DNA of 64,000 nucleotides from Chamaelirium japonicum. Its lineage: Eukaryota > Streptophyta > Magnoliopsida > Liliales > Melanthiaceae. Positions 1-64,000 of this stretch are shown piece by piece. Position 1 is the first letter of the stretch; each line of letters starts with the position of its first letter. The notes under the pieces are model-generated. The model did no database searches and was not told the origin of the DNA. It worked only from the letters and a program-made list of their open reading frames with translations. A program made the position numbers and the translations under genes. The DNA lies in assembly GCA_947650365.1 (NCBI GenBank), contig CANTAL010000002.1, positions 3,045,501-3,109,500 of the forward strand, written 5' to 3'.

Positions 1-685
1 ATCTATTCTAATTCATTCGTACGATCCATTCTAATTCATTCACACGAATGTATCCATTCTAATTCATTCGTACGATCCATTCTAATTCATTTGTATGAAT
101 GTATCCACTCTAATTCATTCGTATGATCCATTCTAATTCATTCGCACGAATGTATCCATTCTAATTCATTCGTACGATCCATTCTAATTCCTTCGTATGA
201 TCCATTCTAATTCATTCGCACGAATGTATCCATTCTAATTCATTCGTACGATCCATTCTAATTAATTCGTACGATCCATTCTAATTCCTTCGTATGATCC
301 ATTCTAATTCATTCGCACGAATGTATCCATTCTAATTCTTTCGTACGATCTATTCTAATTTATTCGTATGATCCATTCTAAATCCTTCGTATGATCCATT
401 CTAATTCATTCGTACGATCAATTCTAATTCATACGATCCATTCTAATTCATTCGCACAATCTATTCTAATTCATTCGTACGATCCATTCTAATTCATTCG
501 TACGATCCATTCTAATTCATTCGTACGATCCATTCTATTTCATTCATACGATCCATTTTAATTCATTCGCACGATCCATTCTAATTCATTCATACGATCC
601 ATTCTAATTCATTCGTACGATCCATTCTAATTTCTTCGTATGATCTATTCTAATTCCTTCGTACGATCCATTCTAATTCCTTCGT
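1..685 (+). repeat. Satellite block F1
   Basis: Array enters from the left edge. The 28-bp variant alternates with 23-bp units up to about 330, then 23-bp units dominate. A 19-bp unit lies near 428-446. Ends on a CGTACG palindrome (683-688). Confidence 0.92.
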
Positions 686-1399
686 ACGAATGAATTAGAA
701 TGGATCATACGAATGAATTAGAATGGATACATTCATGCGAATGAATTAGAATGGATCATACGAATGAATTAGAATGCATTCATTCGTGCGAATGAATTAG
801 AATGGATCGTACGAATGAGTAAGAATGGATCGTACGAATGAATTAGAATGGATTGAATTAGAATGAATCGTACGAATGAATTAGAATGGATCGTACGAAT
901 GAATTGGAATGGATACATTCGTGCGAATGAATTAGAATGGATCGTATGAATGAATTAGAGTGGATACATCCTACAAATGAATTAGAATAGATCGTATGAA
1001 TGAATTAGAATGGATACATTCGTGCGAATGAATTAGAATGGATCATATGAACGAATTAGAATGGATCGTTTGAGTGAATGCGAATGGATCGTGCGAATGA
1101 ATTAGAATGGATTGTACGAATGAATTAGAATGGACCATACGAATGAATTAGAATGGATACATTCGTGCGAATGAATTAGAATGGATCGTATGAATGAATT
1201 AGAATGAATCGTACGAATGAATTAGAATGGATCGTACGAATGAATTAGAATGGATAGTACAAATGAATTAGAATGGATTGAATTAGAATGAATCGTACGA
1301 ATGAATTAGAATGAATCATACCGTACGAATGAATTAGAATGGATCATATGAATGAATTAGAATGGATCGTACGAATGAATTAGAAAGGATACATTCGAA
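686..1399 (-). repeat. Satellite block R1
   Basis: Contains the CGTTTGAGTGAATGCG variant at 1068-1083, a fused truncated unit GGATTGAATTAGAATGAATC, and a module B anchor (GAATCATACCGTACG, 1313-1327). Switches to F on GAATTC at 1397-1402, a junction repeated near 44,474. Confidence 0.92.
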
Positions 1400-1527
1400 T
1401 TCATTCGTACGATCCATTCTAGTTCCTTCGTACGATCCATATTCTAATTCATTCGCACGATCCATTCTAATTCATTCGCACGATCCATTCTAATTCATTC
1501 GTACGATCCATTCTTACTCATCGTATG
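1400..1527 (+). repeat. Satellite block F2 (short)
   Basis: Five to six monomers only. Ends through a CTTACTC unit into ATGCAT (1525-1530); the same junction CATCGTATGCATG ends block F6 at 5742-5747. Confidence 0.88.
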
Positions 1528-1846
1528 CATGAATTAGAATGGATCGTGCGAATGAATTAGAATGGATCGTACGAATGAATTAGAATGGATCGAACGAATG
1601 AATTAGAATGGATACATTCGTGCAAAAGAAATAGAATGGATTGTATGAATGAATTAGAATGGATCGTGCGAATGAATTAGAATGGATCGTACGAATGAAT
1701 TAGAATGGATACATTCGTGCGAAAGAATTAGAATAGATCGTATGAATGAATTAGAATGGATCGTATGAATGAAATAGAATGGATCGTACGAATGAATTAG
1801 AATGGATCGTACGAAGGAATTAGAATGGATCGTACGAATGAATTCG
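1528..1846 (-). repeat. Satellite block R2
   Basis: Holds the GTGCAAAAGAA variant (about 1620) that recurs at 21.1, 38.8, 44.4 and 63.8 kb in the same orientation, so it shares ancestry with those stretches. Right junction GAATTCGAATATAGCCTTTC is a mutated form of the GAATTCGAATGTATCCTTTC junction. Confidence 0.88.
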
Positions 1847-2231
1847 AATATAGCCTTTCTAAATCATTCGTATGATCCATTCTAATTCCTTCGTACGATC
1901 CATTCAAATTCATTCGCACGAATCTATCCATTCTAATTCATTCGTACGATCCATTCTAATTCATTCGCACGATCCATTCTAATTCATTAATACGATCCAA
2001 TCTAATTCCTTTGTATGATCCATTCTAATTCATTAGTACGATTCATTCTAATTCAATACATTCTAATTCATTCGTACGATCCATTCTGACTCATTCGTAC
2101 GATCCATTCTAATTCATTCGCACGAATGAATCCATGCTAATTCATTCGTACAATCTATTCTAATTCATTCGCACGAATGAATTCATTCTAATTCATTCGT
2201 ACGTAATTCAATTCATTCGCACGATCCATTC
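1847..2231 (+). repeat. Satellite block F3
   Basis: Mixed 23-bp and 28-bp units, one AATTCAATACATTC truncated unit near 2044-2060. Ends CCATTCGAATTAGAATG, where F and R halves share GAAT. Confidence 0.88.
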
Positions 2232-2388
2232 GAATTAGAATGAATCGTACGAATGAATTAGAATGAATCATACCGTACGAATGAATTAGAATGGATCGTA
2301 CGAATGAATTAGAATGGATCGTATGAATGAATTAGAATGGATCGTGCGAATGAATTAGAATGGATCGTACGAATGAAATAGAATGGAT
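2232..2388 (-). repeat. Satellite block R3 (short)
   Basis: About seven monomers, starting with a module B anchor at 2265-2279 and ending at the junction GAATGGATTCGCACGAATG, the most frequent R-to-F junction of the window (about 12 occurrences). Confidence 0.88.
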
Positions 2389-3311
2389 TCGCACGAATGT
2401 ATCCATTCTAATTCATTCGTACGATCCATTCTAATTCATTCGTACAATCCATTCTAATTCATTCGCACGATCCATTCGCATTCACTCAAACGACCCATTC
2501 TAATTCATAAGTACGATCCATTCTAATTCATTCAAACGATCCATTCTAATTCATTCGTACGATCCATTCTAATTCATTCGGACGAATGTATCCATTCTAA
2601 TTCATTCGTACGATCCATTCTAATTCATTTGTACGAATGTATCCATTCTAATTCATTCGTTCGATCCATTCTAATTCATTTGTACGAATGTATCCTTTCT
2701 AATTCATTCGTACGATCCATTCTAATTTATTCGCACAATCTATTCTAATTTATTAGTACGATCCATTCTAATTCATTCGTACGATCCATTCTAATTCATT
2801 CGTACGATCCATTCTAATTCATTCGTACGATCCATTCTAATTTATTCGCACAATCTATTCTAATACATTCGTACGATCCATTCTAATTTATTCGCACGAT
2901 ACATTCTAATTCATTCATATGATCCATTCTAATTCATTCGCACGAATGTATCCATTCTAATTCATTCGTACGATCCATTCTAATTCATTCGCACAATCTA
3001 TTCTAATTCATTCATACGATCCATTCTAATTTATTCGCACGATCCATTCTAATTCATTCATACGATCCATTCTAATTCATTCATATGATCCATTCTAATT
3101 CATTCGCACGATCATTCTTGCTCATTCGTACGATCCATTCTAATTCATTCGCACGATCCATTCTAATTCATTAATACGATCCATTCTAATTCATTCGCAC
3201 GATCCATTCTAATTCATTCACACTCATACGATCCATATTCTAATTCATTCGTACGATCCATTCTAATTCGTTTGTACGATCCTTTCTAATTCCTTCGTAC
3301 GATTCATTCGC
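2389..3311 (+). repeat. Satellite block F4
   Basis: Begins with 28-bp units; the CGCATTCACTCAAACG variant lies near 2475-2492, as in every block that follows the GATTCGCACGAATG junction. A CACACTCATACGATCC irregular unit lies near 3218-3235. Ends on CATTCGCACGAATG (3305-3318), a perfect inverted repeat with a CA centre. Confidence 0.9.
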
Positions 3312-3734
3312 ACGAATGGATCGTACGAATGAGTAAGAATGGATCGTACGAATGAAATAGAATGGATCGTATGAATGAATTAGAATGGATCATGAGAATG
3401 AATTAGAATGGATCGTACGAATGAATTAGAATGGATCGTACGATGGAATTAGAATGGATCGTACGAAGGAATTAGAATGGATAGTACGAATGAATTAGAA
3501 TGGATACCTTCGTGCAAATGAATTATAATGGATCGTACGAATGAGTAAGAATGGATCGTACGAATGAAATAGAATGGATCGTATGAATGAATTAGAATGG
3601 ATCGTGCGAATGAATTAGAATGGATCGTACGAATGAATTAGAATGGATCGTAGTAATGAATTAGAATGGATCGTGCGAATGAATTAGAATATGGATCGTA
3701 CGAAGGAATTAGAATGGATTGTACGAATGAATTC
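3312..3734 (-). repeat. Satellite block R4
   Basis: Carries GAGTAAG (CTTACTC) units twice and the GATACCTTCGTGCAAATG unit near 3481-3520, a module B component. Ends at GAATTCGAATG leading into ATCCTTTC. Confidence 0.9.
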
Positions 3735-4237
3735 GAATGCATCCTTTCTAATTCATTCGTACGATCCATTCTAATTCCTTCGTACGATCCATTATAATTC
3801 ATTCGCACGATCCATTCTAATTCATTCGTACGATCCATTCTATTTCATTCATACGATCCATTCTAATTCATTCAAACGATCTATTCTAATTCTTTCGCAC
3901 GAATGTATCCATTCTAATTCATTCGTACGATCCATTCTAATTCATTCGCACGATCCATTCTAATTCATTCAAACAATCCATTCTAATTCTTTTGCACGAA
4001 TGTATCCATTCTAATTCATTCGTTCGATCAATTCTAATTCATTCGTACGATCCATTCTAATTCATTCGCACGATCCATTCTAATTCATGCATACGATCCA
4101 ATCTAATTCATTCATACGATCCATTCTTATTCATTCGCACGATCTAATTCATTCATACGATCCATTCTGATTCATTCGTACGATCTATTCTAATTCATTC
4201 ATACGATCCATTCTAATTCATACAATCTATTCTAATT
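3735..4237 (+). repeat. Satellite block F5
   Basis: Similar in order of variants to 8407-8760, 20,461-20,900, 35,595-35,700, 54,982-55,200 and 63,134-63,590, all of which follow the same GAATTCGAATG junction. Ends TTCTAATTAAAATGG. Confidence 0.88.
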
Positions 4238-5130
4238 AAAATGGATCGTACTAATGAATTAGAATAGATTGTGCGAATGAATTAGAATGGATCGTACGAA
4301 TGAATTAGAAAGGATATATTCGTGCGAATGAATTAGAGTAGATCGTATGAATAAATTAGATTGGATCGTATTAAAGAATTAGAATGGATCGTGCGAATGA
4401 ATTAGAATGTATGTTACGAATGAATTAGAAAGGATAGATTCGTGCGAATGAATTTGAATGGATCGTACGAAGGAATTAGAATGGATCGTACGAAGGAATT
4501 AGAATAGATCATACGAAGAAATTAGAATGGATCGTACGAATGAATTAGAATGGATCGTATGAATGAATTAGAATGGATCGTGCGAATGAATTAAAATGGA
4601 TCGTATGAATGAAATAGAATGGATCGTATGAATTAGAATGGATCGTAAGAATGAAATAGAATGGATCGTACGAATGAATTAGAATAGATTGTGCAAATGG
4701 ATTAGAATGGATCATACGATTGAGTAAGAATGGATTGTACGAATGAAATAGAATAGATCGTACGAATGAATTAAGATGGATCATGCTAATGAATTAGAAT
4801 TGATCGTACGAATGAATTAGAATAGATTGTGCGAATGAATTGGAATGGATCGTACGAATGAATTGGAATGGATACATTCGTGCGAATGATTTAGAATGGA
4901 TCGTATGAATGAATTAGAGTGGATACATTCGTACAAATGAATTAGAATGGATCGTACGAATGAATTAGAATGGATACATTCGTACGAATGAATTAGAATG
5001 GATCATATGAATGAATTAGAATGGATCGTTTGAGTGAATGCGAATGGATCGTGCGAATGAATTAGAATGGATTGTACGAATGAATTAGAATGGATCGTAC
5101 GAATGAATTAGAATGGATACATTCGTGCGA
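4238..5130 (-). repeat. Satellite block R5
   Basis: Contains module A in reverse (4545-4784) and the CGTTTGAGTGAATGCG variant near 5028-5043. Ends at the junction ATTCGTGCGAATCCATTC, which recurs at 10.4, 12.65, 15.8, 18.0, 23.85, 24.9 and 53.9 kb. Confidence 0.9.
4545..4784 (-). repeat. Module A copy (reverse)
   Basis: Ten-monomer module, 240 bp, recognised by an ordered set of variants: CATGATCC start, CTATTTC unit, CTTACTCAATCGTATG, AATCCATTCGCACAATC, a 19-bp unit and CATTTTAATTC. An open frame of 79 codons spans it (repeat translation, starting MIHLNSF). Confidence 0.9.
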
Positions 5131-5744
5131 ATCCATTCTATTTCATTAGTACGATCCATTCTAATTCATTCGCACGATCCATTCTAATTCATTCATACGA
5201 TCCATTCTAATTCATTCGTACGATCCATTCTAATTCATTCGTACGATCCATTCTAATTCATTCGCACAATCTATTCTAATTCATTCGTACGATCCATTCT
5301 AATTCATTCGCACGATCCATTCTAATTCATTCATACGATCCATTCTATTTCATTCGTACGATCCATTCTTACTCATTCGTACGATCCATTCTAATTCATT
5401 TGCACGAAGGTATCCATTCTAATTCATTCGTACTATCCATTCTAATTCCTTCGTACGATCCATTCTAATTCCTTCGTACGATCCATTCTAATTCATTCGT
5501 ACGATCCATTCTAATTCATTCGTACGATCCATTCTAATTCCTTCGTATGATCCATTCTAATTCATTCGTACGGTATGATTCATTCTAATTCATTCGTACG
5601 ATTCATTCTAATTCAATCCATTCTAATTCATTCGTACGATCCATTCTAATTCATTCGTACAATCCATTCTAATTCATTCGTATGATTCATTCTAATTCAA
5701 TCCATTCTAATTCATTCGTATGATCCATTCTTACTCATCGTATG
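5131..5744 (+). repeat. Satellite block F6
   Basis: Full forward module B: CTTACTC unit, TTTGCACGAAGGTATCC, GTACTATCC, CCTTCG units, then the anchor CGTACGGTATGATTC at 5567-5581 and truncated AATTCAATCC units. Ends on ATGCAT (5742-5747). Confidence 0.9.
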
Positions 5745-6180: not shown

Positions 6181-8406
6181 GAAGGAATTAGAAAGGATCG
6201 TATGAATTAATTAGAATGGATCGTACGAATGAAATAGAATGGATCGTACTTATGAATTAGAATGGATCGTACGAATGAACTAGAATGGATCGTACGAATG
6301 AATTAGAATAGATTGTGCGAATGAATTAGAATGGATCGTACGAATGAATTAGAATGGATAAATTCGTGCAAATGAATTAGAATGGATTGTATGAATGAAT
6401 TAGATTGGATCGTATAAATGAATTAGAATGGATCGTACGAATGAATTAGAATAGATCGTACGAATGAATTAGAATGGATACGAATGGATCGTACGAATGA
6501 GTAAGAATGGATCGTACGAATGAAATAGAATGGATTGTACGAATAATTAGAATGGATACATTCGTGCGAATGAATTAGGATGGATCGTATGAATGAATTA
6601 GAATAGATTGTGCGAATGAATTAGAATGGATCATACAAATGAATTAGAATTGATAGATTCGTGCGAATAAATTTGAATGGATCGTACGAATGAGTAAGAA
6701 TGGATTGAATTAGAATGAATTAGAATGGATCGTACGAATGAATTAGAATGGATCGTATGAATGAATTAGAATAGATCGTGCGAATGAATTAGAATGGATC
6801 GTGCGAATGAATTAGAATGGATCGTACGAATGAATTAGAATGGATCGTATGAATGAATTAGATTGGATCGTATTAATGAATTAGAATGGATCGTACGAAT
6901 GAATTAGAATAGATCGTACGAATGAATTAGAATGGATACGAATGGATCGTACGAATGAGTAAGAATGGATCGTACGAATGAAATAGAATGGATTGTACGA
7001 ATGAATTAGAATGGATACATTCGTGCGAATGAATTAGGATGGATCATATGAATGAATTAGAATAGATTATGCGAATGAATTATAATGGATCGTACGAATG
7101 AATTAGAATGGATACATTCATGTGAATGAATTAGAATGGATCGTATGAATGAATTAGAATGGATCGTATGAATGAATTAGAATGGATACGAAGGAATTAG
7201 AATGGATCGTACGAAGGAATTAGATTGGAGAATGGATCGTGCGAATGAATTAGAATGGATCATGCGATAAGAATGGATCGTACGAATGAAATAGAATAGA
7301 TCGTATGGATAATGTAATTTGGATCGTGCTAATGAATTAGAATAGATCGTACGAAAGAATTAGAATGGATCGTACTAATGAATTAGAATAGATTGTGCGA
7401 ATGAATTAGAATGGATCGTACGAATGAATTAGAAAGGATATATTCGTGCGAATGAATTAGAATAGATCGTATGAATGAATTAGATTGGATCGTATTAATG
7501 AATTAGAATGGATCGTGCGAATGAATTAGAATGGATCGTATGAATGAATTAGAATGGATCGTGCGAATGAATTAGAATGGATCGTACGAATGAATTAGAA
7601 TCGATTGTACGAATGAATTAGAATGGATCATGCGAATGAATTAGAATGGATCGTGCGAATGAATTAGAATGGATCGTACGAATGAAATAGAATGGATTGT
7701 ACGAATGAGATAGAATGGATCGTACTAATGAATTAGAATGGATACATTCATGCGAATGAATTAGAATGGATCATACGAATGAATTAGAATGGATTCATTC
7801 GTGCGAATGAATTAGAATGGATCGTACGAATGAGTAAAAATGGATCGTACGAATGAATTAGAATGGAATGAATTAGAATGGATCGTACGAATGAATTAGA
7901 ATGGATTGAATTAGAATGAATCGTACGAATGAATTAGAATGAATCATACCGTACGAATGAATTAGAATGGATCATACGAAGGAATTAGAATGGATCGTAC
8001 GAATGAATTAGAATGGATCGTACAAATGAATTAGAATGGATCGTACGAAGGAATTAGAATGGATCGTACGAAGGAATTAGAATGGATAGTACGAATGAAT
8101 TAGAATGGATACCTTCGTGCAAATGAATTAGAATGGATCGTACGAATGAGTAAGAATGGATCATACGAATGAAATAGAATGGATCGTATGAATGAATTAG
8201 AATGGATCGTGCGAATGAATTAGAATGGATCGTACGAATGAATTAGAATAGATTGTGCGAATGAATTAGAATGGATCGTACGAATGAATTAGAATAGATC
8301 GTACGAATGACTTAGAATGGATCGTAAGAATGAATTAGAATGGATCGTACGAATGAATTAGAATATGGATCGTACGAAGGAATTAGAATGGATCGTAAGA
8401 ATGAAT
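6181..8406 (-). repeat. Satellite block R7
   Basis: A long reverse block. It includes an internal near-repeat (about 6400-6600 versus 6850-7060), a decayed module C copy (GGATAATGTAATTTGG, 7307-7322) and a module B copy with anchor at 7941-7955. Ends at GAATTCGAATGTATCC. Confidence 0.92.
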
Positions 8407-9877
8407 TCGAATGTATCCTTTCTAATTCATTCGTACGGTCCATTCTAATTCCTTCGTACGATCCATTCTAATTCATTCGTACGATCCATTCTAATTCATT
8501 CGCACGATCCATTCTAATTCATTCGTACGATCCATTCTATTTCATTCATACGATCCATTCTAATTCATTCATACGATCTATTCTAATTCTTTCGCACGAA
8601 TGTATCCATTCTAATTCATTCGTACGATCCATTATAATTCATTCGGACGATCCATTCTAATTCATTCATACAATCCATTCTAATTCTTTTGCACGAATAT
8701 ATCCATTCTAATTCATTCGTTCGATCCATTCTAATTCATTCGTACGATCCATTCTAATTCATTCGCACGATCCATTCGTATTCACTCAAACGATCCATTC
8801 TAATTCATTCATATGATCCATTCTAATTCATTCGCACGAATGTATCCATTCTAATTCATTCGTACGATCCATTCTAATTCATTTGTACGAATGTATCCAC
8901 TCTAATTCATTCATATGATCCATTCTAATTCATTCGCACGAATGTATCCATTCCAATTCATTCGTACGATCCATTCTAATTCATTCGCACAATCTATTCT
9001 AATTCATTCCTACGATCAATTCTAATTCATTAGCATGATCCATTCTAATTCATTCGTACGATCTATTCTATTTCATTCGTACAATCCATTCTTACTCAAT
9101 CATATGATCCATTCGAATCCATTCACACAATCTATTCTAATTCATTCGTACGATCCATTCTATTTCATTCGTACGATACATTCTAATTCATACGATCCAT
9201 TCTATTTCATTCATACGATCCATTTTAATTCATTCGCACTATCCATTCTAATTCATTCGTACGATCCATTCTATTTCATTCGTACGATCCATTCTAATTC
9301 ATACGATCCATTCTATTTCATTCATACGATCCATTTTAATTCATTCGCACGATCCATTCTAATTCATTCATACGATCCATTCTAATTCATTCGTACGATC
9401 CATTCTAATTTCTTCGTATGATCTATTCTAATTCCTTCGTACGATCCATTCTAATTCCTTCGTACGATCCATTCAAATTCATTCGCACGAATCTATCCAT
9501 TCTAATTTATTCGTACGATCCATTCTAATTCATTCGCACGATCCATTCTAATTCATTAATACGATCCAACCTAATTCATTCATACGATCTATTCTAATTC
9601 ATTCGCACGAATATATCCTTTCTAATTCATTCGTACGATCCATTCTAATTCATTCGCACAATCTATTCTAATTAATTAGTACGATCCATTCTAATTCACT
9701 CGTACGATCCATTCTAATTCATTAGCACGATCCAAATTCATTTATCCGTACGATCTATTCTATTTCATTCGTACGATCCATTCTTATCGCACGATCCATT
9801 CTAATTCATTCGCACGATCCATTCTCTATTCTAATTCCTTCGTACAATCCATTCTAATTCCTTCGTATCCATTTCGT
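8407..9877 (+). repeat. Satellite block F8
   Basis: Contains the CGTATTCACTCAAACG variant (about 8776), module A in an expanded form (9035-9385) and module C (9732-9747). Its part from 9019 belongs to the first copy of the 5,347-bp duplication. Ends on CGTACG (9875-9880). Confidence 0.92.
9035..9385 (+). repeat. Module A copy, internally expanded
   Basis: As the module at 4545 but with a 111-bp internal duplication (four 23-bp units and one 19-bp unit), which lengthens the open frame to 116 codons because 111 is a multiple of 3. Confidence 0.9.
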
Positions 9878-10434
9878 ACGAATGAATTAGAATGGATCGT
9901 ACGAAGGAATTAGAATGGATCGTACGAAGGAATTAGAATGGATAGTACGAATGAATTAGAATGGATACCTTCGTGCAAATGAATTAGAATGGATCGTACG
10001 AATGAGTAAGAATGGATCGTACGAATGAAATAGAATGGATCGTATGAATGAATTAGAATGGATCGTGCGAATGAATTAGAATGGATCGTACGAATGAATT
10101 AGAATAGATTGTGCGAATGAATTAGAATGGATCGTACGAATGAATTAGAATGGATCGTACGAATGAATTGGAATGGATACATTCGTGCGAATGAATTAGA
10201 ATGGATCGTATGAATGAATTAAAGTGGATACATTCGTACAAATGAATTAGAATGGATCGTACGAATGAATTAGAATGGATACATTCGTGCGAATGAATTA
10301 GAATGGATCATATGAATAAATTAGAATGGATCGTTTGAGTGAATGCGAATGGATCGTGTGAATGAATTAGAATGGATTGTACGAATGAATTAGAATGGAT
10401 CGTACGAATGAATTAGAATGGATACATTCGTGCG
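9878..10434 (-). repeat. Satellite block R8
   Basis: Inside copy 1 of the 5,347-bp unit. Starts with CCTTCG-type and GATACCTTCGTGCAAATG units (module B remnant) and carries CGTTTGAGTGAATGCG near 10,331-10,346. Confidence 0.92.
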
Positions 10435-10735
10435 AATCCATTCTATTTCATTCGTACGATCCATTCTAATTCATTCGCCCGATCCATTCTAATTCATTCA
10501 TACGATCCATTCTAATTAATTCGTACGATCCATTCTAATTCATTCGTACGATCCATTCTAATTCATTCGCATAATCTATTCTAATTCATTCGTGCGATCC
10601 ATTCTAATTCATTCGCACGATCCATTCTAATTCATTCATACGATCCATTCTATTTCATTCATATGATCCATTCTAATTCATTCGCACGATTCATTCTAAT
10701 TCATTAGCATGAAAAAACACGATCCACTCACATAC
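10435..10735 (+). repeat. Satellite block F9
   Basis: Thirteen or so units with CGCCCG, CGCATA and CGTGCG rarities that are shared exactly with 15,782-16,082. Ends with the A6 marker. Confidence 0.92.
10711..10730 (+). repeat. A6 junction marker
   Basis: GAAAAAACACGATCCACTCA is the only clear departure from the unit sequence in the window. It joins an F block to an R block that starts CATACGAATAAATTAG. Confidence 0.9.
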
Positions 10736-12653
10736 GAATAAATTAGAATGAATTAGAATGGATAGTACGAATGAATTAGAATGGATTGAATTAGAATGGA
10801 TCGTGCGAATGAATTAGAATGGATCGTACGAATGAATTAGATTGGATCGTATGAATGAATTAGAATGGATCATGCGAATGAATTAGAATGGATCGTACGA
10901 ATGAATTAGAATGGATCGTTTGAATGAATTAGAATGGATCGTACTTATGAATTAGAATGGGTCGTTTGAGTGAATGCGAATGGATCGTGCAAATGAATTA
11001 GAATGGATTGTACGAATGAATTAGAATGGATTGTACGAATGAATTAGAATGGATCGTGCGAATGAATTAGAATGGATCGTACGAATGAATTAGAATGGAT
11101 CGTTTGAATGAATTAGAATGGATCGTACTTATGAATTAGAATGGGTCGTTTGAGTGAATGCGAATGGATCGTGCGAATGAATTAGAATGGATTGTACGAA
11201 TGAAATAGAATGGATCGTACGAAGGAATTAGAATGGATACCTTCGTGCAAATGAATTAGAATGGATTGAATTAGAATGAATCGTACGAATGAATTAGAAT
11301 GAATTATACCGTACGAATGAATTAGAATGGATCATACGATGGAATTAGAATGGATCGTACGAATGAATTAGAATGGATCGTACGAATGAATTAGAATGGA
11401 TCGTACGAAGGAATTAGAATGGATCGTACGAAGGAATTAGAATGGATAGTACGAATGAATTAGAATGGATACCTTCGTGCAAATGAATTAGAATGGATCG
11501 TACGAATGAGTAAGAATGGATCGTACGAATGAAATAGAATGGATCGTATGAATGAATTAGAATGGATCGTGCGAATGAATTAGAATGGATCGTACGAATG
11601 AATTAGAATAGATTGTGCGAATGAATTGGAATGGATCGTACGAATGAATTGGAATGGATCGTACGAATGAATTAGAATGGATCGTATGAATGAATTAGAA
11701 TGGATCGTGCGAATGAATTAGAATGGATCGTACGAATGAATTAGAATGGATAGATTCATGCGAATGAATTTAAATGGATCGTACGAAGGAATTAGAATGG
11801 ATCGTACGAAGGAATTAGAATAGATCATACGAAGAAATTAGAGTGGATCGTACGAATGAATTAGAATGGATCGTATGAATGAATTAGAATGGATCGTGCG
11901 AATGAATTAAAATGGATTGTATGAATGAAATAGAATGGATCGTATGAATTAGAATGGATCGTACGAATGAAATAGAATGGATCGTACGAATGAATTAGAA
12001 TAGATTGTGCGAATGGATTAGAATGGATCATACGATTGAGTAAGAATTGATTGTACGAATGAAATAGAATAGATCGTACGAATGAATTAGAATGGATCAT
12101 GCTAATGAATTAGAATTGATCGTACGAATGAATTAGAATAGATTGTGCGAATGAATTAGAATGGATCGTACGAATGAATTGGAATGGATACATTCGTGTG
12201 AATGAATTAGAATGGATCGTATGAATTAGAATGGATCGTACGATTGAGTAAGAATGGATTGTACGAATGAAATAGGATAGATCTTACGAATGAATTAGAA
12301 TGGATCATGCTAATGAATTAGAATTGATCGTACGAATGAATTAGAATAGATTGTGCGAATGAATTAGAATGGATCGTACGAATGAATTGGAATGGATACA
12401 TTCGTGCGAATGAATTAGAATGGATCGTATGAATGAATTAGAGTGGATACATTCGTACAAATGAATTAGAATGGATCGTACGAATGAATTAAATGGATAC
12501 ATTCGTGCGAATGAATTAGAATGGATCATATGAATGAATTAAAATGGATCGTTTGAGTGAATGCGAATGGATCGTGCGAATGAATTAGAATGGATTGTAC
12601 GAATGAATTAGAATGGATCGTACGAATAAATCAGAATGGATACATTCGTGCGA
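10736..12653 (-). repeat. Satellite block R9
   Basis: Contains two GTACTTATG-CGTTTGAGTG stretches in tandem (about 10,915-11,000 and 11,100-11,175), a module B anchor variant GAATTATACC (11,301-11,315), module A (11,861-12,100) and a partial second module A (about 12,220-12,318) made by a roughly 211-bp local duplication. Confidence 0.92.
11861..12100 (-). repeat. Module A copy (reverse)
   Basis: 240 bp. A partial duplicate of its right half lies at about 12,220-12,318. Confidence 0.9.
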
Positions 12654-13471: not shown

Positions 13472-13479
13472 ATGAATGA
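13464..13479. repeat. 16-bp palindrome TCATTCATATGAATGA at an F-to-R switch
   Basis: Perfect palindrome centred on CATATG, the same centre as the 142-bp palindrome but with opposite block order. Confidence 0.93.
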
Positions 13480-18818: not shown

Positions 18819-18826
18819 ATGAATGA
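18811..18826. repeat. 16-bp palindrome TCATTCATATGAATGA at an F-to-R switch
   Basis: Copy-2 counterpart within the 5,347-bp duplication. Confidence 0.93.
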
Positions 18827-50806: not shown

Positions 50807-51149
50807 GCACGAATGTGTCCATTCTAATTCATTCATATGATCCATTCTAATTCTTCGTTCAATCCATTCTAATTCATTCGCACGATCCATTCACATTCAC
50901 TCAAACGATCCATTCTAATTCATTCATATGATCCATTCTAATTCATTCGCACGAATGTATCCATTCTAATTCATTCGTACGATCCATTCTAATTCATTTG
51001 TACGAATGTATCCACTCTAATTCATTCATACGATCCATTCTAATTCATTCGCACGAATGTATCCATTCCAATTCATTCGTACGATCCATTCTAATACATT
51101 CGCACAATCTATTCTAATTCATTCGTACGATCAATTCTAATTCATTAGC

Positions 51150-52612: not shown

Positions 52613-53895
52613 GAATAAATTAGAATGAATTAGAATGGATTGTGTGAATGAAATTGATCGTACGAATGAATTAGAATAGATTGTGCGAATGAATTAGAAT
52701 GGATCGTACGAATGAATTGGAATGGATCATACGAATGAATTAGAATGGATAGTACGAATGAATTAGAATGGATACATTCATGCGAATGAATTAGAATGGA
52801 TCGTATGAATGAATTAGAATGGATCGTATGTGTGAATTAGAATGGATACGAAGGAATTAGAATGGATCGTACGAAGGAATTAGAATGGAGAATGGATCGT
52901 GCGAATGAATTAGAATGGATCGTACGAATGAAATAGAATAGATCGTACGGATAAATGAATTTGGATCGTACTAATGAATTAGAATGGATCGTATGAATGA
53001 ATTAGAATGGATCATACTAATGAATTAGAATAGATTGTGCGAATGAATTAGAATGGATCTTACGAATGAATTAGAAAGGATATATTCGTGCGAATGAATT
53101 AGAATAGATCGTATGAGTGAATTAGATTGGATCGTATTAATGAATTAGAATGGATCGTGCGAATGAATTAGAATGGATCGTACGAATGAATTAGAATGGA
53201 TAGATTCGTGCGAATGAATTTGAATGGATCGTATGAAGGAATTAGAATGGATCGTACGAAGGAATTAGAATAGATCATACGAAGAAAATAGAATGGATCG
53301 TACGAATGAATTAGAATGGATCGTATGAATGAATTAGAATGGATCGTGCGAATGAATTAAAATGGATCGTATGAATGAAATAAAATGGATCGTATGAATT
53401 AGAATGGATCGTACGAATGAAATAGAATGGATCGTACGAATGAATTAGAATAGATTGTGCGAATGGATTAGAATGGATCATACGATTGAGTAAGAATGGA
53501 TTGTACGAATGAAATAGAATAGATCGTACGAATGAATTAGAATGGATCATGCTAATGAATTAGAATTGATCGTACGAATGAATTAGAATAGATTGTGCGA
53601 ATGAATTAGAATGGATCGTACGAATGAATTGGAATGGATACATTCGTGCGAATGAATTAGAATGGATCATATGAATGAATTAGAGTGGATACATTCGTAC
53701 AAATGAATTAGAATGGATCGTACGATTGAATTAGAATGGATACATTCGTGCGAATGAATTAGAATGGATCATATGAATAAATTAGAATGGATCGTTTAAG
53801 TGAATGCGAATGATCCTGCGAGTGAATTAGAATGGATTGTACGAATGAATTAGAATGGATCGTACGAATGAATTAGAATGGATACATTCGTGCGA
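52613..53895 (-). repeat. Satellite block R28
   Basis: Reverse module C (52,949-52,964) followed by module A (53,311-53,550), the mirror of the order in F28. Contains CGTTTAAGTGAATGCG near 53,791. Ends GTGCGAATCCATTC. Confidence 0.93.
53311..53550 (-). repeat. Module A copy (reverse)
   Basis: 240 bp, translation identical to the 51,150 copy on the other strand. Confidence 0.9.
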
Positions 53896-54820
53896 ATCCA
53901 TTCTATTTCATTCGTACGGTCCATTCTAATTCACTCGCACGATCCATTCTAATTCATTCATACGATCCATTCTAATTCATTCGTATGATCCATTCTAATT
54001 CATTCGTACGATCCATTCTAATTCATTCGCACAATCTATTCTAATTCATTCGCACGATCCATTCTAATTTATTCGCACGATCCATTCTAATTCATTCATA
54101 TGATCCATTCTATTTCATTCGTACGATCCATTCTTACTCATTCGTACGATCCATTCTAATTCATTTGCACGAAGGTATCCATTCTAATTCATTCGTACTA
54201 TCCATTCTAATTCCTTCGTACGATACATTCTAATTCCTTCGTACGATCCATTCTAATTCATTCGTACGATCCATTCTAATTTATTCGTACGATCCATTCT
54301 AATTCCTTCGTATGATCCATTCTAATTTATTCGTACGGTATGATTCATTCTAATTCATTCGTACGATTCATTCTAATTCAATCCATTCTAATTCATTCGT
54401 ACGATCCATTCTAATTCATTCGTACGATTCATTCTAATTCAATCCATTCTAATTCATTCGTACGATCCATTCTTACTCATTCGTACGATCCATTCTAATT
54501 CATTCGCACGAATGAATCCATTCTAATTCATTCGTATGATCCATTCTAATTCATTCGCATGAATGTATCCATTCTAATTCATTCGTACGATCCATTCTAT
54601 CTCATTCGTACAATCCATTCTATTTCATTCGTACGATCCATTCTAATTCATTCGCATGATCCATTCTAATTCATTCGCATGATCCATTCTAATTTATTTG
54701 CACGATCCATTCTAATTCATTCATACGATCCATTCTAATTCATTTATATGATCCATTCTAATTCATTCGTACGATCCATTCTAATTCATTAGCACGAAAA
54801 AACACGATCCACTCACATAC
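53896..54820 (+). repeat. Satellite block F29
   Basis: Forward module B with anchor at 54,332-54,346; the block and its A6 end (54,796-54,815) are repeated at about +8,155 bp in F34. Confidence 0.92.
54796..54815 (+). repeat. A6 junction marker
   Basis: Followed by CATACGAATAAATTAGAATG and a GTGTGAATG unit, shared with 62.95 kb. Confidence 0.9.
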
Positions 54821-54981
54821 GAATAAATTAGAATGAATTAGAATAGATTGTGTGAATGAATTAGAATGGATCGTATGAATGAATTAGAATGGATCGTGCG
54901 AATGAATTAGAATGGATCGTGCGAATGAATTAGAATATGGATCGTACGAAGGAATTAGAATGGATCGTACGAATGAATTCG
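54821..54981 (-). repeat. Satellite block R29 (short)
   Basis: Seven units between the A6 junction and GAATTCGAATGTATCCTTTC. Repeated as R34 at 62,976-63,133. Confidence 0.9.
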
Positions 54982-55214
54982 AATGTATCCTTTCTAATTC
55001 ATTCGTACGATCCATTCTAATTCCTTCATACGATCCATTCTAATTCATTCGTACGGTCCATTCTAATTCATTCGCACGATCCATTCTAATTCATTCGTAC
55101 GATCCATTCTATTTCATTCATACGATCCATTCTAATTCATTCATACGATCCATTCTAATTCCTTCGTAAGATCCATTCTAATTCATTCGTACGATCCATT
55201 CTTACTCAATTGTA
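54982..55214 (+). repeat. Satellite block F30 (short)
   Basis: Same start as F35 but cut short at CAATTGTACGTATGAATAAATTAG, a junction found only here, centred on TACGTA. Confidence 0.88.
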
Positions 55215-57167
55215 CGTATGAATAAATTAGAATGGATCGTGCGAATGAATTAGAATGGATTATATGAATGAAATAGAATGGATCATACGAATGAAATAGA
55301 ATGGATCGTACGAAGGAATTAGAATGGATCGTATGAATGAATTAGAGTGGATACATTCGTGCGAATGAATTCGAATAGATCGTGCGAATGAATTAGAATT
55401 GATTGTACGAATGAATTAGAATGGATCGTACGAATGAAATAGAATGGATCGTACGAATGAATTAGAATGGATACATTCGTGCAAAAGAAATAGAATGGAT
55501 TGTATGAATGAATTAGAATGGATCGTGTGAATGAATTAGAATGGATCATACGAATGAATTAGAATGGATACATTCGTGCGAATGAATTAGAATGGATCGT
55601 GCGAATGAATTAGAATGGATCGTACGAATGAATTAGAATGGATCGTACGAATGAATTAGAATGGATCGTATGAATGAATTAGAATGGATCGTGCGAATGA
55701 ATTAGAATGGATCGTGCGAATGAATTAGAATGGATCGTACGAATGAATTAGAATGGATCATATGAATGAATTAGATTGGATCGTATTAATGAATTAGAAT
55801 GGATCGTACAAATGAATTAGAATAGATCGTACGAATGAATTAGAATGGATACGAATGGATCGTACGAATGAGTAAGAATGGATCGTACGAATGAAATAGA
55901 ATAGATTGTACGAATGAATTAGAATGGATACATTCGTGCGAATGAATTAGGATGGATCGTATGAATGAATTAGAATAGATTGTGCGAATGAATTAGAATG
56001 GATCGTACGAATGAATTAGAATGGATACATTCATGCAAATGAATTAGAATGGATCGTATGAATGAATTAGAATGGATCGTATGAGTGAATTAGAATGGAT
56101 ACGAAGGAATTAGAATGGATCGTACGAAGGAATTAGAATGGAGAATGGTTCGTGCGAATGAATTAGAATGGATCGTGCGATAAGAATGGATCGTACGAAT
56201 GAAATAGAATAGATCGTACGGATAAATGAATTTGGATCGTGCTAATGAATTAGAATGGTTCGTACGAATGAATTAGAATGGGTCGTACTAATGAATTAGA
56301 ATAGATTGTGCGAATGAATTAGAATGGATCGTACGAATGAATTAGAAAGGATATATTCGTGCGAATGAATTAGAATAGATCGTATGAATGAATTAGATTG
56401 GATCGTATTAATGAATTAGAATGGATCGTGCAAATGAATTAGAATGGATCGTACGAATGAATTAGCATGGATAGATTCGTGCGAATGAATTTGAATGGAT
56501 CGTACGAAGGAATTAGAATGGATCGTACGAAGGAATTAGAAAAGATCATACGAAGAAATTAGAATGGATCGTACGAATGAATTAGAATGGATCGTATGAA
56601 TGAATTAGAATGGATCGTGCGAATGAATTAAAATGGATCGAATGAATAAAATAGAATGGATCGTATGAATTAGAATGGATCGTACGAATGAAATAGAATG
56701 GATCGTACGAATGAATTAGAATAGATTGTGCGAATGGATTAGAATGGATCATACAATTGAGTAAGAATGAATTGTACGAATGAAATAGAATAGATCGAAC
56801 GAATGAATTAGAATGGATCATTCTAATGAATTAGAATTGATCGTACGAATGAATTAGAATAGATTGTGCGAATGAATTAGAATGGATCGTACGAATGAAT
56901 TGGAATGGATACATTCGTGCGAATGAATTAGAATGGATCGTATGAATGTATTAGAGTGGATACATTCGTACAAATGAATTAGAATCGATCGTACGAATGA
57001 ATTAGAATGGATACATTCGTGCAAATGAATTAGAATGGATCATATGAATGAATTAGAATGGATCGTTTGAGTGAATGCGAATGGATCGTGCGAATGAATT
57101 AGAATGGATTGTACGAATGAATTAGAATGGATCGTACGAATGAATTAGAATGGATACATTCGTGCGA
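55215..57167 (-). repeat. Satellite block R30
   Basis: Contains the complement of the 48,257-48,487 module (55,319-55,549), reverse module C (56,220-56,235) and module A (56,582-56,821), then CGTTTGAGTGAATGCG near 57,063. Confidence 0.93.
56582..56821 (-). repeat. Module A copy (reverse)
   Basis: 240 bp with private changes (GAATGAATAAAATAG, CATACAATTGAG, CGAACGAATG). Confidence 0.9.
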
Positions 57168-57918
57168 ATTCATTCTATTTCATTCGTACGATCCATTCTA
57201 ATTCATTCGCACGATCCATTCTAATTCATTCATACGATCCATTCTAATTCATTCGTACAATCCATTCTAATTCATTCGTACGATCCATTCTAATTCATTC
57301 GCACAATCTATTCTAATTCATTCGTATGATCCATTCTAATTCATTCGCACAATCCATTCTAATTCATTCATACGATCCATTCTATTTCATTCGTACGATC
57401 CATTCTTACTCATTCGTACGATCCATTCTAATTCATTTGCACGAAGGTATCCATTCTAATTCATTCGTACTATCCATTCTAATTCCTTCGTACGATCCAT
57501 TCTAATTCCTTCGTACGATCCATTCTAATTCATTCGTACGATCCATTCTAATTCATTCGTACGATCCATTCTAATTCCTTCGTATGATCCATTCTAATTC
57601 ATTCGTATGTATGATTCATTCTAATTCATTCGTACGATTCATTCTAATTCAATCCATTCTAATTCATTCGTACGATCCATTCTAATTCATTCGCACGATC
57701 CATTCTAATTCATTCATACGATCTATTCTAATTCATTCGCACGAATGTATCCATTCTAATTCATTCGGACGATCCATTCTAATTCATTCATACAATCCAT
57801 TCTAATTCTTTTGCACGAATGTATCCATTCTAATTCATTCGTACGATCCATTCTAATTCATTCGTATGATCTATTTTAATTCATTCGCATGATCCATTAT
57901 AATTCATTCATACGATCC
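57168..57918 (+). repeat. Satellite block F31
   Basis: Module B whose anchor is decayed (CGTATGTATGATTC near 57,605). Ends abruptly at ACGATCCACGAATAAAATAG. Confidence 0.9.
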
Positions 57919-59571
57919 ACGAATAAAATAGAATGGATTAGAATGGATTAGAATAGATTGTGCGAATGAATTAGATTGGATCGTACGAATGAATTAGAAT
58001 GAATCATACCGTACGAATGAATTAGAATGGATCATACGAAGGAATTAGAACGGATCGTACGAATGAATTAGAATGGATCGTACGAATTAAATAGAATGGA
58101 TTATACGAATGAGATAGAATGGATCGTACGAATGAATTAGAATGGATACATTCATGCGAATGAATTAGAATGGATCATACGAATGAATTAGAATGGATTC
58201 ATTCATGTGAATGAATTAGAATGGATCGTACGAATGAGTAAGAATGGATCGTACGAATGAATTAGAATGGATTGAATTAGAATGAATCGTACGAATGAAT
58301 TAGAATGGATCGTACGAATGAATTAGAATGGATCGTATGAATGAATTAGAATGGATTGAATTAGAATGAATCGTACGAATGAATTAGAATGAATCATACC
58401 GTATGAATGAATTAGAATGGTTAGAATGGATAGATTCGTGCGAATGAATTTGAATGGATCGTACGAAGGAATTAGAATGGATCGTACGAAGGAATTAGAA
58501 TAGATCATACGAAGAAATTAGAATGGATCGTACGAATGAATTAGAATGGATCGTATGAATGAATTAGAATGGATCGTGCGAATGAATTAAAATGGATCGT
58601 ATGAATGAAATGGAATGGATTGTATGAATTAGAATGGATCGTACGAATAAAATAGAATGGATCGTACGAATGAATTAGAATAGATTGTGCGAATGGATTA
58701 GAATGGATCATACGATTGAGTAAGAATGGATTGTACGAATGAAATATAATAGATCGTACGAATGAATTAGAATGGATCATGCTAATGAATTAGAATTGAT
58801 CGTATGAATGAATTAGAATAGATTGTGCGAATAAATTAGAATGGATCGTACGAATGAATTAGAATGGATACATTCGTGCAAATGAATTAGAATGGATCGT
58901 ATGAATGAATTAGAGTGGATACATTCGTACAAATGAATTAGAATGGATTGTAAAGGAATTAGAATGGATCGTACGAAGGAATTAGAATGGATAGTACGAA
59001 TGAATTAGAATGGATACCTTCGTGCAAATGAATTAGAATGGATCGTACGAATGAGTACGAATGGATCGTACGAATGAAATAGAATGGATCGTATGAATGA
59101 ATTAGAATGGATCGTGCGAATAAATTAGAATGGATCGTACGAATGAATTAGAATAGATTGTGCGAATGAATTAGAATGGATCGTACGAATAAATTAGAAT
59201 GGATCGTACGAATGAATTATGAATGAATTAGAATGGATTGTACGAATGAAATAGAATAGATTGTACGAATGAATTAGAATGGATCATGCTAATGAATTAG
59301 AATGGATCGTTCGAATGAATTAGAATAGATTGTGCGAATGAATTAGAATGGATCGTACGAATGAATTTGAAAGGATAGATTGTGCGAATGAATTAGAATG
59401 GATCGTACGAATGAATTGGAATGGATACATTCGTGCGAATGAATTAGAATGGATCGTACGAATGAATTAGAATGGATCGTACGAATGAATTAGAATGGAT
59501 CGTATGAATGAATTAGAATGGATCGTGCGAATGAATTAGAATGGATCGTACGAATGAAATAGAATGGATTC
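57919..59571 (-). repeat. Satellite block R31
   Basis: Two module B anchors (58,001-58,015, 58,391-58,405) and module A (58,541-58,780). A small direct repeat GAATTATGAATGAATTAG lies near 59,215. Ends GATTCGCACGAATG. Confidence 0.92.
58541..58780 (-). repeat. Module A copy (reverse)
   Basis: 240 bp with private changes (GAAATGGAATGG, GAAATATAATAG). Confidence 0.9.
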
Positions 59572-59755
59572 GCACGAATGTATCCATTCTAATTCATTCG
59601 TACGATCCATTCTAATTCATTCGTACAATCCATTCTAATTCATTCGCACGATCCATTCGCATTCACTCAAACGATCCATTCTAATTCATTCATATGATCC
59701 ATTCTAATTCATTCGCACGATCCATTCTAATTCATTCATACGATCCATTCTAATT
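59572..59755 (+). repeat. Satellite block F32 (short)
   Basis: Eight units; CGCATTCACTCAAACG near 59,656. Ends in an inverted repeat with 15-nt arms around TC (59,740-59,771). Confidence 0.9.
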
Positions 59756-62165: not shown

Positions 62166-62950
62166 ATCCATTCTAATTCATTCGCACAATCTATTCTAAT
62201 TCATTCGTACGATCCATTCTAATTCACTCGCACGATCCATTCTAATTCATTCATACGATCTATTCTATTTCATTCGTACGATCCATTCTTACTCATTCGT
62301 ACGATCCATTCTAATTCATTTGCACGAAGGTATCCATTCTAATTCATTCGTACTATCCATTCTAATTCCTTCATACGATCCATTCTAATTCCTTCGTACG
62401 ATCCATTCTAATTCATTCGTACTATCCATTCTAATTCATTCGTACGATCCATTCTAATTCCTTCGTATGATCCATTCTAATTCATTCGTACGGTATGATT
62501 CATTCTAATTTATTCGTATGATTCATTCTAATTCAATCCATTCTAATTCATTCGTACGATCCATTCTAATTCATTCGTACGATTCATTCTAATTCAATCC
62601 ATTCTAATTCATTCGTACGATCCATTCTTACTCATTCGTACGATCCATTCTAATTCATTCGCACGAATGAATCCATTCTAATTCATTCGTATGATCCATT
62701 CTAATTCATTCGCATGAATGTATCCATTCTAATTCATTCGTACGATCCATTCTATCTCATTCGTACAATCCATTCTATTTCATTCGTACGATCCATTCTA
62801 ATTCATTCGCACGATCCATTCTAATTCATTCGCATGATACATTCTAATTTATTCGCACGATCCATTCTAATTCATTCATACAATCCATTCTAATTCATTC
62901 ATATGATCCATTCTAATTCATTCGTACGATCCATTCTAATTCATTAGCAC

Positions 62951-62970
62951 GAAAAAACACGATCCACTCA
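62951..62970 (+). repeat. A6 junction marker
   Basis: Followed by TATACG instead of CATACG, a single change. Confidence 0.9.
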
Positions 62971-62975
62971 TATAC

Positions 62976-63133
62976 GAATAAATTAGAATGAATTAGAATG
63001 GATTGTGTGAATGAATTAGAATGGATCGTATGAATGAATTAGAATGGATCGTGCGAATGAATTAGAATGGATCGTGCGAATGAATTAGAATATGGATCGT
63101 ACGAAGGAATTAGAATGGATCGTACGAATGAAT
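62976..63133 (-). repeat. Satellite block R34 (short)
   Basis: Counterpart of R29, about 8,155 bp further on, with the same ATATGGATCG unit. Confidence 0.9.
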
Positions 63134-63593
63134 TCGAATGTATCCTTTCTAATTCATTCGTACGATCCATTCTAATTCCTTCGTACGATCCATTCTAATT
63201 CATTCGTACGGTCCATTCTAATTCATTCGCACGATCCATTCTAATTCATTCGTACGATCCATTCTATTTCATTCATACGATCCATTCTAATTCATTCATA
63301 CGATCTATTCTAATTCTTTCGCATGAATGTATCCATTCTAATTCATTCGTACGATCCATTCTAATTCATTCGCACGATCCATTCTAATTCATTCATACAA
63401 TCCATTCTAATTATTTTGCACGAATGTATCCATTCTAATTAATTCGTTCGATCCATTCTAATTCATTCGTACGATCCATTCTAATTCATTCGCACGATCC
63501 ATTCTAATTCATGCATACGATCCAATCTAATTCATTCATACGATCCATTCTAATTCATTCGCACGAATGTATCCATTCTAATTCATTCGTACA
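63134..63593 (+). repeat. Satellite block F35
   Basis: Matches 20,461-20,914 at an offset of 42,679 bp. Ends TACATGTA (63,590-63,597). Confidence 0.92.
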
Positions 63594-64000
63594 TGTATGA
63601 ATGAATTAGAATGGATCGTACGAATGAATTAGAGTTGATACATTCGTGCGAATGAATTAGAATGGATCGTACGAATGAATTAGATTGGATCGTATGAATG
63701 AATTATAATGGATCATGCGAATGAATTAGAATAGATCATACGAATGAATTAGAATGGATCGTACGAATGAATTAGAATGGATACATTCGTGCAAAAGAAT
63801 TAGAATGGATTGTATGAATGAATTAGAATGGATCGTGCGAATGAATTAGAATGGATACATTCGTGCGAATGAATTAGAATGGATCGTATGAATGAATTAG
63901 ATTGGATCGTATGAATGAATTAGAATGGATCGTACGAATGAATTAGAATGGATCATACGAATGAATTAGAATGGATCGTATGAATGAATTAGAATGGATT
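63141..64000. repeat. Segment repeated 42.7 kb away (right copy)
   Basis: Right copy of the 20,461-21,350 segment, cut by the window edge. Confidence 0.85.
63594..64000 (-). repeat. Satellite block R35, running off the right edge
   Basis: Matches the start of R14 (20,915 onward) including AGAGTTGATACATTCG and GTGCAAAAGAA. The array continues beyond the window. Confidence 0.92.

What the first reader, a model, noticed from the sequence alone, without database searches (positions are those of the whole stretch)
1..64000. Satellite array with about 69 strand switches in 64 kb
The repeat family is uniform, yet the strand flips on average every 0.9 kb, with F and R totals nearly balanced (about 30 and 34 kb). 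Most described satellite arrays keep one orientation over long stretches, so such dense inversion is unusual and needs a mechanism that makes inverted junctions often (template switching, foldback repair, or a palindrome-driven process).
Basis: seen in the sequence. Interest (0 to 1): 0.8.

Follow-up and report, generated by a model that had tools for sequence, protein, structure and literature searches.

The report
Strand-flipping centromere satellite array
This stretch is part of the centromere DNA of a small lily-like plant whose chromosomes have many centromere patches; its 23-base repeat flips direction about every 0.9 kb, which was already reported, but the flip points themselves carry new clues to how such flips are made and copied.

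Summary
The array is the Chio1/Chio2 (23/28 bp) centromeric satellite of holocentric Chionographis japonica, whose mixed, "frequently alternating" orientation is already in print. Other sampled arrays of the genome switch about as often (161 in 131 kb), so this window is ordinary for its genome.

New here is the junction anatomy. The 69 switches fall into about 25-30 families. In this window and other arrays on C14, C2 and C3, reverse-to-forward junctions are few and much copied (the 28-bp core of one has 12,282 exact copies genome-wide), forward-to-reverse ones many and rare; arrays on C1, C5, C30 and C100 lack this asymmetry. Distinct junctions share short, often palindromic words above chance (15 of 67 families with 4 or more bases, against 2.2%); 7 of 67 sit exactly on the 8-bp dyad TCGTACGA. 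[quoted passage not shown] Raw reads were not available.

The parts
1..64000 (.). Chio1/Chio2 (23/28 bp) centromeric satellite array, 70 strand blocks, 69 switches
   Evidence: identity of organism
9874..15220 (.). first copy of a 5,347-bp tandem duplication with six strand blocks
   Evidence: flanks of the doubled A junctions 99.8-99.9% alike
15221..20225 (.). second copy of the tandem duplication (98.7% over 6.2 kb of aligned sequence)
2370..2429 (+). R-to-F junction family A
5087..5146 (-). R-to-F junction family A
10392..10451 (-). R-to-F junction family A
12610..12669 (-). R-to-F junction family A
13989..14048 (+). R-to-F junction family A
15739..15798 (-). R-to-F junction family A
17957..18016 (-). 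R-to-F junction family A
19336..19395 (+). R-to-F junction family A
23806..23865 (-). R-to-F junction family A
24837..24896 (-). R-to-F junction family A
26223..26282 (+). R-to-F junction family A
28004..28063 (+). R-to-F junction family A
30248..30307 (+). R-to-F junction family A
34910..34969 (+). R-to-F junction family A
40208..40267 (+). R-to-F junction family A
47920..47979 (+). R-to-F junction family A
49443..49502 (+). R-to-F junction family A
50788..50847 (+). R-to-F junction family A
53852..53911 (-). R-to-F junction family A
57124..57183 (-). R-to-F junction family A
59551..59610 (+). R-to-F junction family A
1356..1415 (-). R-to-F junction family B
1820..1879 (+). R-to-F junction family B
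3710..3769 (+). R-to-F junction family B
8384..8443 (+). R-to-F junction family B
35570..35629 (+). R-to-F junction family B
44435..44494 (-). R-to-F junction family B
54956..55015 (+). R-to-F junction family B
63111..63170 (+). R-to-F junction family B
660..712 (.). F-to-R junction with 8 shared bases at the dyad TCGTACGA
24140..24180 (.). F-to-R junction on the dyad; also the seam of a tandem duplication 23126-24156 / 24157-25152 that contains junction A (97.6%)
25018..26242 (.). fold-back-like palindrome around F-to-R junction 25614 (95.8% over the whole, 97.4% next to the centre)
20884..20943 (+). F-to-R junction family FR1, six copies in window (20913, 28587, 38670, 44203, 45079, 63592)
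10700..10759 (+). F-to-R junction family FR0 with an A6 run, six copies in window at 88% (10729, 16076, 35182, 52606, 54814, 62972)

Best explanation
The window is a piece of a Chio1/Chio2 centromere array of the holocentric plant Chionographis japonica (C14:3045501-3109500 of its HiFi/Hi-C assembly). New strand switches arise when a growing or broken strand in the satellite switches to the opposite strand at a short inverted repeat, most recognisably at the monomer's own 8-bp dyad TCGTACGA, which in adjacent monomers forms an interrupted inverted repeat (8-bp arms, 15-nt spacer). Once made, a junction is copied together with its flanks: segments of about 0.2-6 kb are duplicated within the array and between arrays, in direct and inverted orientation about equally, so a few old junctions become very common. 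Shown: the map, the junction families, the two orientations of copies, the excess of shared words at junctions, the sharing between contigs. Inferred: that the event is a replication or repair template switch, and that copying is by conversion, unequal exchange or re-insertion.
For: Identity: 23/28-bp variants that differ by one T-to-C change and 5 bp, TTCGTACGA inside the unit, a step in scaffold size after C12 (69.9 Mb) to C13 (3.9 Mb), and scaffold N50 81.11 Mb in the paper against C8 = 81,106,678 bp here. Copies: 102 direct and 101 inverted pairs of 300 bp or more at 93% or more; all 210 pairs of the 21 A copies align across the junction; A present on C14, C2, C3 and C9, its 28-bp core with 12,282 exact copies genome-wide. 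Junction words: overlap mean 2.38 bp in 51 F-to-R families and 1.84 in 16 R-to-F families against 0.66 and 0.68 in 400 synthetic joins of real sequence each (0 of 4,000 resamplings, and P = 0.0018); 12 and 3 families with 4 or more shared bases; 7 of 67 with the full TCGTACGA (P = 5e-7 against the synthetic rate of 0.7% for 6 or more, a rate that rests on about 3 of 400; P = 1.5e-4 against the consensus-phase rate of 1.7%). Seamless 22-bp junctions on the dyad are common genome-wide in both polarities: 4,823 F-to-R and 5,655 R-to-F, against 2,056 R-to-F on the 4-bp palindrome GATC. Inverted paralogous pairs exceed direct ones within 5 kb: 53 to 28 in the window, 47 to 29 outside. The dyad hairpin folds at -6.2 and -6.8 kcal/mol on the two strands.
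Against: Most junctions do not sit on the dyad: 60 of 67 families lack the full word and 22 (14 F-to-R, 8 R-to-F) have no shared base; the much-copied families A and B are among those without. Symmetric fold-back arms are rare (4 of 32). The strong asymmetry of junction families in the window and other group I arrays is not explained by a polarity-symmetric switch alone (0 of 10,098 selected simulated windows reach a difference of 11 families, observed 13); a founder effect in the copied text must be added. From 5 to 10 kb the excess of inverted pairs is gone (29 to 31 and 12 to 17). Pattern counts measure copies, not events, and three of the four comparators at 4-bp palindromes did not complete. 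No raw read was seen.
Confidence: 0.6

Rival explanations
1. Fold-back or breakage-fusion-bridge growth: each switch is an inverted duplication X|rc(X), so arms on the two sides of every new junction are copies of each other.
For: 25614 has arms 97.4% alike over about 270 bp, and 44203, 24156 and 63592 lie above the 95% point of mismatched arms; 47436 has a perfect 51-bp arm; inverted pairs are in excess within 5 kb.
Against: Only 4 of 32 F-to-R junctions with long enough arms exceed the 95% point of mismatched arms (0.904), although the best partners of 20 of 21 A copies still agree at 94% or more, so erosion is not an easy excuse. For R-to-F junctions the test is weak: 0 of 31 exceed their own 95% point, but that point (0.965) is raised by mismatched arms that are copies of A; 3 of the 31 (61854, 35599, 63140) would exceed 0.904. 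A symmetric fold-back model did not give the family asymmetry (0 of 3,028 selected windows).
Confidence: 0.15
2. Excision and re-insertion: circles or linear fragments cut from the array (eccDNA) close or re-insert by end joining in random orientation; novel junctions are unit-to-unit seams and conserved ones lie inside the unit.
For: Direct and inverted copies are equal; a tandem duplication with R and F ends (23126-25152) has a new F-to-R junction exactly at its seam; conserved R-to-F and diverse F-to-R junctions in group I fit a unit with R and F ends. Kuo et al. 2023 propose eccDNA integration or microhomology-mediated gene conversion for array growth (section 14 read).
Against: A is not a special centre: homology around A reaches about as far (median 642 bp) as around 25 control anchors (230-663 bp, two of them one base apart), and A is no more centred in it. 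Group II arrays show no such asymmetry. Microhomology at the dyad fits either route.
Confidence: 0.3
3. Assembly or library artefact: palindromic chimeric reads or misjoined repeats create false switches.
For: Megabase satellite arrays are hard to assemble, and no raw read was available here.
Against: Arms are mostly diverged, not identical as in read-level palindromes; the same junctions with the same flanks recur on different contigs; density is of the same order in all 16 sampled stretches (0.80-2.40 per kb); HiFi libraries averaged 14-26 kb (section 21 read), so one read should span many switches; the mixed orientation is published.
Confidence: 0.03

Closest known systems
Chio1/Chio2 centromeric satellites of Chionographis japonica (Kuo et al. 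2023, PMC10264360)
   Same: 23- and 28-bp monomers, 5-bp length difference plus one substitution, 8-bp dyad, mixture of forward and reverse arrays, 12 chromosomes, scaffold N50 81.11 Mb.
   Different: Nothing in the array itself. Switch counts, junction families and junction words were not in the passages and sections that I saw; supplements were not readable here.
Chama satellite of Chamaelirium luteum (Kuo et al. 2025, PMC12722358)
   Same: Sister genus, shares TTCGTACGA with Chio; centromeric.
   Different: 60-bp monomer, arrays consistently oriented, with higher-order structure over several hundred kb (passage seen). So the shared 9-mer alone is not enough to make dense switching.
Tribolium madens macro-dyad satellites TmSat1/TmSat2 (PMC13081366; passages and first part of the discussion seen)
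   Same: Strand-inverted subarrays with highly conserved inversion sites (98-99%), like junction A here.
   Different: There predominantly two subarrays, tending to symmetry, kilobases to tens of kb; here blocks average 0.9 kb, mostly without arm symmetry, with many junction families.
[quoted passage not shown]
   Same: Inverted junctions at pre-existing interrupted inverted repeats of 2-14 bp; here 0-8 shared bases.
   Different: Shown there at the yeast SUL1 region; origin dependence and extrachromosomal intermediates not testable here.

Membership tests
Chio1/Chio2 satellite of C. japonica | 23-bp and 28-bp monomers, 5 bp and one substitution apart | tested here: met
   ATCCATTCTAATTCATTCGTACG and ATCCATTCTAATTCATTCGCACGAATGT; published monomer letters are in a figure and were not seen
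Chio1/Chio2 satellite of C. japonica | contains TTCGTACGA and an 8-bp dyad | tested here: met
   sequence; for the published 9-mer; hairpin; that the published 8-bp dyad is TCGTACGA is inferred from the 9-mer and the hairpin
Chio1/Chio2 satellite of C. japonica | lies in the C. japonica assembly: 12 chromosome scaffolds, N50 81.11 Mb | tested here: met
   C8 = 81,106,678 bp; C12 69.9 Mb and C13 3.9 Mb mark the step; eight of the twelve lengths were seen
Chio1/Chio2 satellite of C. japonica | binds CENH3 | not testable with these tools
   reported in PMC10264360 for Chio arrays in general; not shown for this contig
Fold-back inverted duplication | symmetric arms around each junction | tested here: not met
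   4 of 32 F-to-R junctions above the 95% point of mismatched arms; the R-to-F control is inflated (0 of 31)
[quoted passage not shown]
   clear excess over synthetic joins and the full 8-bp dyad in 7 of 67 families, but 22 of 67 families have no shared base
[quoted passage not shown]
   needs replication mapping and circle or linear extrachromosomal DNA
Tribolium macro-dyad satellites | mostly two long symmetric inverted subarrays per array | tested here: not met
   70 blocks, median 681.5 bp; arms mostly not alike
Tribolium macro-dyad satellites | conserved inversion sites | tested here: met
   clear for R-to-F junctions of group I arrays; in group II some of both types are conserved (R-to-F up to 13 copies, F-to-R up to 6)

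The most novel reading that the evidence does not exclude
The centromere monomer carries its own inversion generator: the 8-bp dyad TCGTACGA makes replication or repair switch strands, and the resulting junctions then travel between centromere units of different chromosomes, so that junction families form fingerprints of who exchanges with whom. Junction and 60-mer sharing already split the sampled arrays into two networks (C14, C2, C3, C9; and C1, C5, C30, C100) with no multi-copy junction family in common in the sample.
Probability: 0.35. Interest if true: 0.62.

Novelty: already known. Interest (0 to 1): 0.42.

Why it matters
Satellite arrays are usually explained by unequal exchange, which keeps orientation (general knowledge). 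Here orientation flips every 0.8-0.9 kb in a centromeric satellite that makes up about 16% of a genome (published figure), while the sister genus keeps one orientation. Junctions are rare, recognisable, heritable marks in otherwise repetitive DNA, so they make it possible to ask how often inverted joins form, at which sequence, and how segments move between centromeres, which bears on how a holocentric chromosome built on a few large units arose.

Tried and rejected
Database relatives: no match in plasmids, viral contigs, bacterial and archaeal genomes, phages; no Rfam hit; a 17-base piece of the monomer is in no paper text. Papers looked into for precedents and not used: passages of PMC4022460 and PMC12597820; no passage found in PMC10880262.

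A as an amplification centre: A copies are not better centred in their homology, nor flanked by clearly longer homology, than 25 control anchors. A is as multiplied as ordinary interior sequence at +-60 bp (median 20 other copies against 19), though more so at +-100 bp (19 against 9). Rejected as a special centre.

Revision of F-to-R centres by deletion (which would fake diversity): 11 of 35 F-to-R junctions have both flanks continuing into one other junction, against 11.1 expected from mixed pairs; 23 of 34 R-to-F against 19.4. Not supported. Single cases that looked like centre deletions (681, 61854) are therefore not claimed.

A polarity rule (R-to-F always conserved): true for the window and group I (homologous pairs 0.149 R-to-F against 0.0057 F-to-R outside the window), not for group II (0.166 against 0.097, but 16 families against 13; bootstrap interval of the between-locus difference -0.04 to 0.21); seamless dyad junctions are about equal genome-wide. 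Rejected as a general law. The two groups were named after I had seen the junctions; the 60-mer grouping does not use that choice.

A first set of simulations without homologous exchange ran to about 1,000 junctions and was dropped as unrealistic; smaller and larger sets with exchange replaced it. The tandem-type model gave only 19 usable windows. Windows in these sets are not independent (several times and two places per seed). Tandem or fold-back seams were also counted by blunt coordinate matching; the rule was too loose to discriminate (tandem-type 30 of 35 and 32 of 34) and is used only for the 23126-25152 example.

Rows dropped: in the pooled census one junction of 230, within 60 bp of an end; the three A copies of the second tandem-duplication unit in the divergence profile and; 3 of 35 and 3 of 34 junctions with arms under 120 bp. 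Of 39 stretches fetched hold the satellite; L036, only partly satellite, was not mapped. At 90% identity single linkage joins 91 of 113 R-to-F junctions (A, B and others) into one family, so 16 R-to-F families is a low count (32 at 93%).


Full report
CHECK. A cyclic two-strand Viterbi map of the 23-bp unit ATCCATTCTAATTCATTCGTACG finds 69 switches, 70 blocks, F 30,327 bp and R 33,673 bp, unchanged for switch penalties of 10, 14, 20 and 30. 92.7% of bases match the consensus along the path and no 46-bp stretch is below 62%. Block lengths look exponential (mean of interior blocks 925 bp, KS P = 0.25).

WHAT IT IS. The genome search places the window at G000:C14:3045501-3109500 of a 1.52-Gb assembly in 3,253 contigs, with 863,780 + and 858,031 - exact copies of the 23-mer. 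The monomers (23 bp; 28 bp with one T-to-C change and 5 more bases), TTCGTACGA, the drop in size after the twelfth scaffold and C8 = 81,106,678 bp match the Chio1/Chio2 satellites and the assembly (scaffold N50 81.11 Mb, 12 chromosomes) of Chionographis japonica, Kuo et al. 2023, PMC10264360 (abstract, passages, sections 8, 14 and 21 seen). [quoted passage not shown] Kuo et al. 2025, PMC12722358 (passages and section 12 seen), speaks of 'frequently alternating orientation' in contrast to consistently oriented Chama arrays of the sister genus. Supplements could not be read. I saw no junction analysis in the passages that I read; that is no claim about the whole literature (searches).

THE WINDOW IS ORDINARY FOR ITS GENOME. 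Sixteen satellite stretches (in 14 of the 19 pieces) on C14, C1, C2, C3, C5, C30 and C100 hold 161 switches in 131,119 bp, one per 0.81 kb (0.80-2.40 per kb). C1 at 50, 115 and 136 Mb and the start of C9 hold 20 in 17 kb.

MANY SWITCHES, FEWER EVENTS. At 93% identity over 120 bp the 35 F-to-R junctions of the window form 23 families and the 34 R-to-F junctions 7 (20 and 5 at 90%; 22 clusters in all at 88%). R-to-F family A has 21 copies and B has 8; all 210 pairs of A align across the junction. An independent count agrees: BLAST alignments that cross a junction by 40 bp have a median of 0 at F-to-R (19 of 35 with none) and 5 at R-to-F (5 of 34 with none). Four strand-symmetric models never gave a difference of 11 or more families (0 of 10,098 selected windows, of which only 19 from the tandem model and not all independent; observed 13 with the families).

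HOW FAR THE ASYMMETRY GOES. Outside the window, group I arrays (C14, C2, C3) repeat it: 44 F-to-R families for 50 junctions, 14 R-to-F families for 49. Group II arrays (C1, C5, C30, C100) do not: 13 for 31 and 16 for 30. The groups, which I named after seeing the junctions, share no junction family with more than one copy (0 of 17 F-to-R and 0 of 8 R-to-F); shared 60-mers, which do not depend on that choice, give the same two groups, with C9 beside group I and C1:115 Mb set apart when three clusters are asked for. The 28-bp A core has 12,282 exact copies genome-wide; the capped list of places shows 21 on C1, spread from 1.75 to 134.9 Mb, before it turns to C2, where copies are dense, but it omits minus-strand copies known on C2 and is no count. 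I read the asymmetry as a founder effect: a text that happens to contain an R-to-F junction was spread in group I. By logic, because the two kinds alternate, each extra copy of A that does not carry an F-to-R junction along must create a new one.

COPIES IN BOTH ORIENTATIONS. Paralogous pairs of 300 bp or more at 93% or more are 102 direct and 101 inverted. Within 5 kb inverted pairs are in excess, 53 to 28 in the window and 47 to 29 outside, and from 5 to 10 kb they are not (29 to 31; 12 to 17); pairs are not independent, a few inverted ones are self-palindromes, and two positions share a strand with probability 0.46-0.60 at 0.5-3.5 kb. One FR-to-FR unit of 5.5 kb covers 71% of the window at 93%, five units 94.7%.

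JUNCTION WORDS. For 67 families (51 F-to-R, 16 R-to-F, pooled at 90%), bases that fit both strands at the join average 2.38 and 1.84, against 0.66 and 0.68 in synthetic joins of real sequence (0 of 4,000 resamplings; P = 0.0018). Fifteen of 67 have 4 or more (expected 2.2%), 7 of 67 the full palindrome TCGTACGA, 5 F-to-R and 2 R-to-F; two more have TCGTA, six AATT or GATC; 22 have none, A and B among them. TCGTACGA fits the 8-bp dyad that Kuo et al. singled out for hairpins; the 2025 paper suggests that TTCGTACGA could lead to fork collapse and ectopic recombination. Genome-wide, perfect 22-bp junctions on the dyad number 4,823 (F-to-R) and 5,655 (R-to-F), about polarity-neutral, against 2,056 for R-to-F on GATC; these are copies, not events. 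In neighbouring monomers the dyad forms an 8-bp stem with a 15-nt loop, -6.2 and -6.8 kcal/mol on the two strands. In yeast, ODIRA junctions lie at interrupted inverted repeats of 2-14 bp (passages seen, PMC10766183).

MECHANISM. [quoted passage not shown] Plain fold-back is a minority (4 of 32 F-to-R junctions with significant arms; the R-to-F control is inflated by copies of A, 0 of 31). Excision and re-insertion remains a serious rival for the copying step. Artefact is unlikely because arms are diverged and junctions recur on several contigs, but raw reads were not available.

VERDICT. Real, confirmed, and known in kind; the junction data are the added value.

Noticed in passing
8691-20225: Recent tandem duplication with a period of 5,347 bp (98.7% over 6.2 kb; flanks of its doubled A junctions 99.8-99.9%).
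   Followed up: yes
10729, 16076, 35182, 52606, 54814, 62972: F-to-R junction family with an A6 run (GAAAAAACACGATCCACTCACAT) that does not fit the monomer; origin unknown.
   Followed up: no
window and L001-L015, L025, L029, L032, L035/L040: Sampled arrays fall into two groups by shared 60-mers; C1:115 Mb (L029) shares little with either. Published text calls the repeats uniform across units.
   Followed up: partly
   Followed up: no
L003, L006: Satellite is interrupted by stretches without the repeat and the pieces are richer in G+C; their content was not identified.
   Followed up: no
window-wide: The 28-bp variant carries a small mirrored piece CATTCGCACGAATG, itself like a tiny F-to-R switch; junctions A and B both use its 3' end CGAATGTATCC.
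   Followed up: no
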